Part shown: one piece after another, positions 2,589-5,179 of the stretch
Layout: each line of letters begins with the position of its first letter
Position numbering within the stretch: position 1 is the first letter of the stretch
Source: Deltaproteobacteria bacterium
GTDB lineage: Bacteria > Desulfobacterota > Syntrophia > Syntrophales > UBA2210
Direction of reading: 5' to 3'
Length of the DNA stretch: 5,179 nt
Assembly: GCA_019314085.1 (NCBI GenBank)
Contig: JAFCZZ010000165.1
Span: 1-5,179 of the forward strand
The notes under the pieces: model-generated
Database searches by the model: none
Told to the model about the DNA's origin: nothing
Seen by the model: only the letters and a program-made list of their open reading frames with translations
Made by a program: the position numbers and the translations under genes

Positions 2589-2681
2589 AAGTAATGTAAG
2601 GATTTCTCCCCCAGACTGACACAACTTCAACAGCATAGAGCGCCTTCTTCCCCATGTTGTCGTCCCTCTTATATTCCCTCA

Positions 2682-2776
2682 CCCCGATACAGGGATACGT
2701 CCCACTGAAGGGGATAAGTGCGATAATGAAGTCGCTTTCTACGAGAAAGCAACTTTTATCTTACTAATGCGTTAAC
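2682..2776 (-). repeat. Hairpin-rich interspersed repeat, copy 1
   Basis: This is one of two direct copies, offset by 145 bases from the copy at 2826-2921. Over 2705-2776 the copies differ at 5 of 72 positions, all transitions (2707, 2727, 2743, 2756, 2772); the outer 2682-2704 part is more diverged and needs a one-base gap. The core is a long hairpin with arms 2729-2740 and 2744-2755 and a 3-base loop. Within the stem one position is C against A on the plus strand, which becomes a G-U pair in minus-strand RNA, so the structure is better as RNA made in the direction of the flanking genes. Outer GATAA/TTATC arms extend the stem past a small bulge. Two weaker hairpins with CCC/GGG arms follow on the minus strand. 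It resembles a REP or small MITE-like element, but I do not recognise a named family. Confidence 0.85.
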
Positions 2777-2787
2777 AAAATGATCCC

Positions 2788-2803
2788 CCGCGGAAAAGCG
2801 CGG
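2788..2803. other. GC-rich hairpin in the spacer between the two repeats
   Basis: CCGCG and CGCGG flank a 6-base GAAAAG loop, a 5-bp GC stem in the 49-base spacer between the repeats. No T-tract follows on either strand, so it is not a canonical intrinsic terminator. The rest of the spacer shows nothing recognisable. Confidence 0.4.
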
Positions 2804-2825
2804 AGAATAATTTCCAGCTTACTAG

Positions 2826-2921
2826 TCCCGATAAACGGGATAAGCCCCCCTAAAGGGGATAAGTGCGATAACGAAGTCGCTTTCTACAAGAAAGCAACTT
2901 CTATCTTACTAATGCGCTAAC
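2826..2921 (-). repeat. Hairpin-rich interspersed repeat, copy 2
   Basis: This is the second direct copy of the element at 2682-2776. Its main hairpin is the more complete of the two: arms 2873-2885 and 2889-2901 give 13 pairs with a 3-base loop, again with one G-U pair in minus-strand RNA at the same place as in copy 1. Two further hairpins follow on the minus strand: CCCC/GGGG at about 2846-2858 and TCCCG/CGGGA with arms 2836-2840 and 2826-2830. Each is preceded by CTTATCCC, so the tail is itself two imperfect 20-base units. The element begins within the last codons of the lipoprotein gene and overlaps its stop (2917-2919). It therefore sits at the 3' end of that transcript, where it could protect the mRNA or attenuate transcription; there is no clear U-tract. 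Confidence 0.85.
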
Positions 2922-3538: not shown

Positions 3539-4789
3539 TTACAGCTTTGTTGCCACAAGCCAGAGACAGGCGCTCACCCCCGCAATGACATAGTTTATAC
3601 CCAGCAATCCCTCCAGCTCCATCCTGGAAAACCGGGATTTCTTATCACAAAGCCCCAGACAAATCCATATATAAAACACCGGCACCAGCAGTGCCAGGCC
3701 CAACGAAGGGGTGCAACCAAGGGGTAGTGCGGCGATCAGCACCATGCCGGTCAGAATCGTTATCCCCTTCAGCAGGATCCTTGCAGGGCCCTCTCCCATC
3801 ACGATGGGGATCGTTTCCCGGCCGATCAGGCGGTCGCTCTGAATATCCAGCGTGTCCGAAAGAACTGATTTTGAGAAGACAAGGACAAACACAAAGACAA
3901 AGGCCACCACCATGGAGCAGGGTATCTCCAGACTGACGCTTATCCGCGGGACCACGGCAGTCAAGGCAGCCCACGCCATAGCGGTAAAAAAGTTCTTGGA
4001 ACCGGGGAGATCCTCCAGTCGTTTCCCCCACACGTTGACCGTATAGAGCGCGCCAAAGAGTGAGACCGCCCCGACCAGGATAAAGGGCGCCGGGCCCTCC
4101 ATGAAGGACAGTGCCAGTGCGAGGGCAAGGGAAACTATGGCGGCTGTCATGTAAATTCCCTTGTATCGTATATAGGTCTTTTCCCTGAAGCTCCCCTTGA
4201 TCCGTCCGAAACTTTTCCCCTGCAGCCTGTTGATGGTATGGATGGCATAGACGCACAATGAAGCGATAAGTATGTGTGACACATCTACCTCAAGTCCCTG
4301 GAGCAGCATACTGACCAGGGAGAGGAATCCGGCGCCAATGGCGGAGGAAAGGTCTGTGCTGACAAGGAATATCCAGAAATCGTACAGACCCCTCAGCCGT
4401 CCCGGCATCTTCCCTCTTCTGTTGTGGGTGAGATAGTCTATCACCCCCTCGGTGATCCAGTTCGGCGTGGACGCCCCCGCAGAGACACCAATATCCCTGC
4501 ACTTAGCCAGATCAATGCCCTCAAGCTCTTCGGCGGTCTCGACATGGAGCGTTCGGACCCCACAGTCCTGGGATATCGCGGCAAGCCTCCGGGTATTCGC
4601 GCTGTCCTTCCCGCCCACGATGATGATTCCGTCCATCTTGGAGGCCATCTTTTTGATCTCGGTCTGTCTCTGCTCGGTTGAATCGCATATGGTATCAAAG
4701 ATCATGGCCTCCGGAAATCTGCGGCTGATTTCCTGCGCCACCTCCCTGTATCTTCCCGAATCCTGCGTCGTCTGCGCAACAACGCACAC
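3539..4789 (-). CDS. ispH: C-terminal half of IspH fused to a UbiA-like polytopic membrane domain (3' part of a frameshifted gene)
   Basis: This open frame of 417 codons begins at a GTG at 4789 that is an internal codon of ispH, not a natural start. Residues 1-125 are the C-terminal part of IspH: AQTTQDSGRY at 5-14, the third cluster cysteine in DTICDSTEQRQ (C35), GGKDSANTRRL at 59-69 and SAGASTPNWI at 103-112, covering substrate-binding Ser/Asn residues. After a short basic linker (123-133) comes a domain of about 280 residues with roughly eight membrane segments between 148 and 412. Its loop SDTLDIQSDRLIGRETIPI (311-329) matches the second Asp-rich motif of UbiA prenyltransferases. The first motif region, TINRLQGKSFGRIKG at 185-199, lacks the usual NDxxDxxxD aspartates, so activity of the membrane half is doubtful or altered. 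Its natural acceptor cannot be told. The frame joins the upstream fragment if one copy of the 26-bp tandem repeat is removed. Confidence 0.88.
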   Translation of the reverse strand: MCVVAQTTQDSGRYREVAQEISRRFPEAMIFDTICDSTEQRQTEIKKMASKMDGIIIVGGKDSANTRRLAAISQDCGVRTLHVETAEELEGIDLAKCRDIGVSAGASTPNWITEGVIDYLTHNRRGKMPGRLRGLYDFWIFLVSTDLSSAIGAGFLSLVSMLLQGLEVDVSHILIASLCVYAIHTINRLQGKSFGRIKGSFREKTYIRYKGIYMTAAIVSLALALALSFMEGPAPFILVGAVSLFGALYTVNVWGKRLEDLPGSKNFFTAMAWAALTAVVPRISVSLEIPCSMVVAFVFVFVLVFSKSVLSDTLDIQSDRLIGRETIPIVMGEGPARILLKGITILTGMVLIAALPLGCTPSLGLALLVPVFYIWICLGLCDKKSRFSRMELEGLLGINYVIAGVSACLWLVATKL

Positions 4790-5179
4790 CTTATCGTAGG
4801 GGGGAAGACCATCGACATCGTTTGTGTCGTTAGACCATCGACATCGTTTGTGTCGTTAATAACAACCCCCCTTCCCGAGGCATACCCCATGAGGCTGGCG
4901 ACCTCAGGATGCTCTCTGTCCCCGACTATGATCACCGCATAACCGCGTGCCGCATGTTTCTTGATGATCGCCTGGACACTTGCAACACGCGGGCAGGTGG
5001 CATCTACGATCTCTATCCCCTTTTCTCTGATCCGTTCCTTTTCCTGGGGGGATATCCCATGGGCCCGTATCACCACGATACCATCCCGAATCGAATCAAC
5101 ACTGTCTACCGGGACAATACCCCGTTCCCTGAGCAGTTCGACTGTCTGAGGGTTGTGTATGAGGGGACCGTAGGTATAC
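4702..5179 (-). CDS. ispH: 4-hydroxy-3-methylbut-2-enyl diphosphate reductase IspH, 5' part, cut by window edge and frameshifted
   Basis: IspH reduces HMBPP to IPP and DMAPP at a [4Fe-4S] cluster, ending the MEP pathway in the cytosol. The frame is open through the right edge; by family alignment about 30 N-terminal residues, with the first cluster cysteine, lie outside. Seen here are YTYGPLIHNPQ (conserved His at fragment residue 8), VVIRAHGISP at 35-44, the second cluster cysteine in DATCPRV (C62), and GDREHPEV at 86-93, whose His-x-Glu corresponds to the catalytic HPE of the family. Up to VINDTNDVDGL (residue 116) the protein is normal. Then the second copy of a 26-bp tandem repeat shifts the frame and gives a 42-residue arginine-rich tail ending at 4702. 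The correct continuation lies in the frame of 3539-4789. A normal [4Fe-4S] enzyme could not be made from this fragment, as the third cysteine is lost. Confidence 0.92.
   Translation of the reverse strand, partial: YTYGPLIHNPQTVELLRERGIVPVDSVDSIRDGIVVIRAHGISPQEKERIREKGIEIVDATCPRVASVQAIIKKHAARGYAVIIVGDREHPEVASLMGYASGRGVVINDTNDVDGLTTQTMSMVFPPTIRCALLRRRRRIREDTGRWRRKSAADFRRP
4806..4857. repeat. Perfect 26-bp tandem duplication inside ispH
   Basis: Two identical 26-base units, 4806-4831 and 4832-4857, stand head to tail with no mismatch; the match runs on by one base (4858). The length is not a multiple of three, so the second copy breaks ispH. With a single copy the coding strand reads VINDTNDVDGLPPYDKVCVVAQTTQ, a standard IspH sequence, so the duplication is the sole cause of the break. 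Lack of divergence points to a recent event or to an assembly or sequencing artefact. Confidence 0.97.

What the first reader, a model, noticed from the sequence alone, without database searches (positions are those of the whole stretch)
4806..4857. A recent 26-bp tandem duplication splits ispH and is exactly reversible
Two perfect 26-bp copies sit in the middle of ispH. Deleting one restores a textbook IspH sequence across the joint. IspH is normally essential where the MEP pathway is the only isoprenoid route, so a real knockout would be striking. Options are an assembly or chimera error, a strain-specific null mutation with another ispH or a mevalonate route elsewhere, or a slipped-strand switch in which loss or gain of a unit turns the enzyme off and on. 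The absence of mismatches favours a very recent or artificial origin.
Basis: partly seen in the sequence, partly recalled or inferred. Interest (0 to 1): 0.75.

Follow-up and report, generated by a model that had tools for sequence, protein, structure and literature searches.

The report
Isolated 26-bp duplication breaking ispH
A stretch of 26 DNA letters is written twice in a row inside a gene that most bacteria need, breaking it in this one short sequence; nothing points to a switch, and an assembly error or a chance dead-end mutation is the likeliest cause.

Summary
In detail: 4806-4857 holds two perfect adjacent 26-bp copies, and the shift splits an ispH frame on the minus strand. The gene is an IspH-UbiA fusion, a published architecture (PMC4746011, passages) and the usual state in this order. 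Eight of eight genome loci fetched have one copy. The nearest genome aligns to 1,639 window bases with 1,613 of its own, 26 fewer. In 119 genomes of the order, 107 have IspH (2 of them a second full copy), 112 have IspG and 7 have HMG-CoA reductase over its cut-off, so ispH is probably needed. Both halves look about as constrained as neighbouring genes. None of the other 119 listed hits of the N-terminal piece carries the same shifted tail. Copy number varies nowhere I could look, so a slipped-strand switch rests on the repeat alone. My best reading is an assembly-level error or an unrepresentative molecule on a short contig; this is inference, no call shows it directly. A real, very recent null allele is the main rival. 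Reads would decide and none are available. Interest is low.

The parts
4806..4831 (.). first-listed copy of the 26-bp unit (second in reading direction of the gene)
   Evidence: identical to 4832-4857
4832..4857 (.). other copy of the 26-bp unit (first in reading direction of the gene); the period-26 run extends one base, to 4858
4702..5178 (-). N-terminal IspH piece, open at the window end, ending in 42 out-of-frame residues
   Evidence: LYTB 125.7 bits over residues 1-130; tail
3539..4789 (-). C-terminal reading frame from a GTG: rest of IspH plus UbiA domain, 416 aa; the frame itself is open from 4855
   Evidence: LYTB 129.1 bits and UbiA 44.9 bits, both over cut-off; frames
4799..4804 (.). 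G6 run (C6 on the coding strand) flanking the repeat; complementary to 4866-4871
   Evidence: sequence; folding of the region not exceptional, z -1.2 and -1.1
4866..4871 (.). C6 run flanking the repeat on the other side
   Evidence: sequence

Best explanation
The locus is an ordinary ispH-ubiA fusion gene of a Syntrophales-like anaerobe that normally has one copy of this stretch. The second copy is not part of how the gene works. Most likely it is an assembly-level or single-molecule event, for example two overlapping sequence ends joined without merging the overlap, or a chimeric or amplified molecule on a thinly covered contig, and it is absent from most cells of the population. Shown: the duplication, the broken frame, one copy in the relatives examined, no decay of the gene. 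Inferred: that the extra copy is technical or unrepresentative.
For: Perfect copies and no second lesion in either half of the gene. Gene order matches L001-L006 throughout, and against the nearest genome the length difference over the gene is exactly the 26 bases. One copy in 8 of 8 loci. Relatives suggest ispH is needed, so a null allele should not be the majority form. Both ends of the window lie inside genes, as in a short contig. Breaks in relatives' ispH that I could inspect look technical: a run of nine G in G008, runs of N in G048 and G091.
Against: No call shows an artefact directly; reads and assembly data were not available. Gene-splitting tandems are not common in assemblies of this order: 0 of 5 perfect arrays of period 18 or more in 1.98 Mb, so assembly does not make them often, at least in longer contigs. 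From general knowledge, a 27-base repeat is easily spanned by ordinary reads, and graph assembly with longer words would not invent it unless ends were joined badly.
Confidence: 0.6

Rival explanations
1. A real, very recent tandem duplication made by replication slippage or template switching, giving a null or nearly null ispH allele in some cells: dying cells, a minority lineage, or a strain fed by another route.
For: Perfect copies; the gene is otherwise constrained, as expected for a young mutation. The unit holds a short imperfect inverted repeat and lies between complementary G6 and C6 runs. Template switching at imperfect inverted repeats is documented in E. coli (PMC7202029, abstract and start of introduction).
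Against: IspH is probably needed, and a contig consensus should show the common allele. Folding is not exceptional: 23 and 28 of 200 shuffles fold at least as well. The junction shares only one base.
Confidence: 0.32
2. A slipped-strand on/off switch in which gain or loss of the unit turns IspH off and on.
For: The repeat is perfect and the unit is not a multiple of three.
Against: Only two copies; one copy in 8 of 8 loci; no other listed protein has the same tail; a housekeeping enzyme is an unlikely target (general knowledge).
Confidence: 0.02
3. Recoding: a -1 slip of the ribosome on the C6 run just after the repeat restores the frame and gives a full-length protein with nine extra residues.
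For: The shifted frame reads TTC CCC CCT there, and a -1 slip would return to the IspH frame (sequence).
Against: The C6 run is not conserved: none of the eight loci has six C there. Nine extra residues between conserved IspH segments would probably harm folding (inference).
Confidence: 0.01
4. An established broken gene, tolerated because the genome has another ispH or a mevalonate route, with the UbiA part possibly still made from an internal start.
For: The C-terminal frame is open for 416 codons from a GTG and UbiA is intact. G012 and G083 have two full ispH matches; 7 of 119 genomes have HMG-CoA reductase over cut-off.
Against: Second copies and mevalonate genes are rare in the order, and none of G001-G008 is among the HMG-CoA reductase matches. 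No relaxed selection in the IspH halves.
Confidence: 0.03

Closest known systems
IspH-UbiA fusion proteins (Rao et al. 2015, PMC4746011; passages read)
   Same: IspH domain followed by a UbiA-like prenyltransferase domain, in anaerobic deltaproteobacteria-like organisms
   Different: Here the frame is split by a 26-bp duplication; the paper reports 47 fusions, mainly Desulfobacterales, and none with this break in the passages read
Frame-breaking short tandem duplications by replication slippage or template switching
   Same: Perfect adjacent copies, short junction homology, an imperfect inverted repeat nearby
   Different: Not shown to exist in any cell; only one example of this event
Phase-variable repeat tracts
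   Same: Loss or gain of a unit would change the reading frame
   Different: Two copies only, not variable in anything examined, and in a housekeeping gene
Draft-genome breaks in ispH of relatives (G008, G048, G091)
   Same: An apparently broken ispH in a metagenome-derived assembly
   Different: Those are a homopolymer run and runs of N, not a tandem duplication

Membership tests
IspH / LytB (PF02401, TIGR00216) | Profile match over the curated cut-off | tested here: met
   Each piece is over the Pfam cut-off. Each is under the TIGR00216 cut-off of 187.85 (115.7 and 117.1 bits), as expected of halves.
IspH / LytB (PF02401, TIGR00216) | Three conserved cysteines for the 4Fe-4S cluster on one chain | tested here: not met
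   The DATCP cysteine is on the N piece and the DTIC cysteine on the C piece; the first lies outside the window. That these are the ligands is recalled; PMC4746011 states three conserved Cys.
IspH-UbiA fusion | UbiA domain C-terminal to IspH in one frame | tested here: inconclusive
   The C-terminal frame holds the end of IspH and UbiA but is cut off from the IspH start by the frameshift.
Phase-variable (slipped-strand) locus | Copy number of the unit varies between cells or relatives | tested here: inconclusive
   No variation in relatives: one copy in 8 of 8 loci. Variation within the population needs reads.
Phase-variable (slipped-strand) locus | Repeat tract kept in related genomes | tested here: not met
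   8 of 8 loci without a second copy.
Established pseudogene | Relaxed selection or further lesions | tested here: not met
   dN/dS against L001 0.12, 0.23 and 0.23 for the three parts, neighbours 0.05-0.20; no further stop or shift.
Assembly artefact | Absent from the raw reads | not testable with these tools
   No reads or assembly data available.

The most novel reading that the evidence does not exclude
A reversible 26-bp slippage switch in an essential isoprenoid gene: part of the population carries two copies, loses IspH, becomes dormant or dependent on neighbours, and reverts when one copy is lost.
Probability: 0.02. Interest if true: 0.75.

Novelty: not a real feature. Interest (0 to 1): 0.12.

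Why it matters
If the two-copy allele were common in living cells, a normally indispensable enzyme would be off in part of a natural population, which would be surprising. On present evidence the value is modest: a caution that a perfect, frame-breaking tandem duplication on a short metagenome-like contig should be checked against reads before it is read as biology.

Tried and rejected
Own genome: no genome is held for the window, so need for ispH was judged from relatives.

Recurrent breakage: one search lists truncated relatives that start near the same place (P0003, P0014, P0021, P0032). I read them as contig ends or gene-caller choices, since no row that gives a contig length shows 5240, 4815, 4558 or 3004. 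This is not proof: 120 of 302 hits were listed and some rows give no contig.

Hot spot: of the 120 listed hits, 30 (the window's own included) end in 8 or more non-homologous residues, with ends at 138-267 of the reference. Eight of the 30 end at 138-151, the window at 150; P0136, placed at 236, probably belongs there too. The search favours it: the query's own homology ends at 150, and local alignments tend to stop in this poorly conserved part. In whole genomes the only break without N that I found within a contig is G008, elsewhere in the gene.

Recoding on the C6 run: not conserved. Hairpin-driven instability: folding not exceptional. Rfam: no match in the window. The unit in viral contigs: no exact match.

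Period 26: of five arrays in 1.98 Mb, one more has period 26 (L043 12849-12901). It could hint at a word-size artefact, but one case is too few. In the first 40 stretches 15 arrays of period 12 or more were seen, 6 of them not a multiple of three; those of 12-17 bases were not checked for splitting genes.

Papers: six searches. None of the titles and abstract starts listed concerns a tandem duplication in ispH; that is all these searches say. PMC6819657 was searched for passages: frameshift silencing and reversion, but no occurrence of 'tandem' or 'duplication', so it is not used.

Full report
Observation. Window 4806-4831 and 4832-4857 are identical; the period-26 run is 4806-4858. It is the only exact tandem of period 8 or more in the window. 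In 100 order-2 Markov simulations 85 had no exact tandem and the longest was 10 bases, so chance is excluded. On the minus strand the N-terminal frame matches IspH through the first copy, then continues out of frame for 42 residues to a stop at 4702. The C-terminal frame is closed upstream by TAA at 4858-4856, reads the second copy in the normal frame and runs to 3539. Both pieces are above the Pfam LYTB cut-off and each is below the TIGR00216 cut-off.

What the gene is. The C-terminal frame carries the end of IspH and a UbiA-like prenyltransferase domain. Of the 120 proteins listed (1,468 found), 109 are 551-581 aa long and 119 carry both Pfam domains; the best apart from the window's own record are 88% identical. 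Rao et al. 2015 (PMC4746011, passages) described 47 IspH-UbiA fusions, mainly in Desulfobacterales. In 119 genomes of the order of the nearest genome, 107 have an IspH match; 98 of these have a full-length one, and for 93 of the 98 the open frame is 554 aa or longer, as a fusion needs. Frame length alone does not prove UbiA. In the six loci L001-L006 the IspH parts and ubiA lie in sequence. In G019 the fetched 3 kb shows IspH without UbiA. So the fusion is the ordinary state here.

Relatives have one copy. Eight of eight loci from genome contigs have a single copy. Of 155 genomes searched with the gene's DNA, the nearest (G001, 84%) aligns to query bases 1-1639 with 1,613 bases, 26 fewer. No genome or database protein of the same species turned up: the next protein after the window's own is 88% identical. 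Gene order (ispH-ubiA, a short unassigned gene, ferredoxin, tmk, holB, ricT) is the same in L001-L006, so the contig is not grossly chimeric.

Is IspH needed? In 119 genomes IspG is found in 112 and HMG-CoA reductase over its cut-off in 7 (8 at E 0.001). None of the eight matching genomes is G001-G008. A second full ispH is in 2 of 107 genomes, G012 and G083. These genomes are drafts, so absence is weak evidence. The window's own genome could not be searched.

Age. The copies have no mismatch. Against L001, dN/dS is 0.12 before the repeat, 0.23 after it and 0.23 for ubiA; the five neighbouring genes give 0.05-0.20. The two later values are slightly above that range against L001; against L002, L003, L005 and L006 they lie within the range of the neighbours, and against L004 ubiA does while dS of the IspH C part is saturated. 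With one pairwise comparison per locus, a short period without selection would not be seen. The gene shows no further lesion, so the event is young if real.

Recurrence. Searching the N-terminal piece gave 302 hits, 120 listed; none of the other 119 listed carries the same shifted tail. Thirty of the 120, the window included, end in a non-homologous tail of 8 or more residues. The ends spread over 138-267 of the reference, with 8 of 30 at 138-151 against about 3 expected from an even spread. I read this mild concentration as bias of the search and of local alignment in a poorly conserved part, but I did not prove that. P0132 and P0149 break near the same place, by what look from the protein like different small indels (inference; no DNA seen).

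Breaks elsewhere. Nine of the 107 genomes lack a full-length match (G008, G048, G052, G068, G075, G091, G105, G108, G116). G008 has a frameshift at a run of nine G. G048 and G091 have runs of N. The other six were not examined further; G052 and G075 have their pieces on two contigs, and G116 and G052 begin within 5 bases of a contig start.

Base rate. In 100 stretches from genomes of the order (1,979,555 bases; two stretches overlap by about 2.8 kb) there are 5 perfect arrays of period 18 or more. Four periods are multiples of three. The fifth, 26 bp in L043, has no frame of 80 or more codons entering from upstream. By this test of stop-free frames none splits a gene. This fits selection against such events, and it also means that assemblies of this order do not often create them, which counts against the artefact reading for long contigs.

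Mechanism if real. The junction shares one base. The unit has a short imperfect inverted repeat and lies between complementary G6 and C6 runs. Template switching at imperfect inverted repeats is documented in E. coli (PMC7202029, abstract and start of introduction). Folding is not exceptional (z -1.22 and -1.09; 23 and 28 of 200 shuffles fold at least as well). A -1 slip on the C6 run would restore the frame with nine extra residues, but none of the eight loci has six C there.

Judgement. The duplication is in the sequence; its biological reality is unproven. I put 0.60 on an assembly-level or unrepresentative-molecule event, 0.32 on a real young null allele, 0.03 on a tolerated break, 0.02 on a switch and 0.01 on recoding. 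These are judgements, not computed values. 'Not a real feature' is the best single label, not a demonstrated one; if the allele is real, it is a new case of a known kind of mutation.

Noticed in passing
window 2681-2826 and 2827-2921: An intergenic repeat of about 145 bases, with a partial second copy, has relatives in 27 of 119 genomes of the order, up to 9 matches in one genome though few candidates per genome were scored. Nine copies align at 89% mean identity and share a hairpin; RNAalifold gives 43 pairs, 3 with two-sided changes, and no net covariation support. No Rfam match in the window.
   Followed up: partly
window 3539-5178 and genomes of the order: The IspH-UbiA fusion appears to be the usual form of ispH in this order, beyond the Desulfobacterales named in PMC4746011: 93 of 98 full-length matches lie in open frames of 554 aa or more. 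None of the NCBIfam families matched by the C-terminal piece is an IspH-UbiA model.
   Followed up: partly
L043 12849-12901: A second perfect 26-bp tandem, in another draft genome of the order, containing a strong inverted repeat and apparently outside genes.
   Followed up: no
L016 about 2151-2159: ispH of G008 is frameshifted at a run of nine G, probably a homopolymer error in a draft genome.
   Followed up: partly
   Followed up: no
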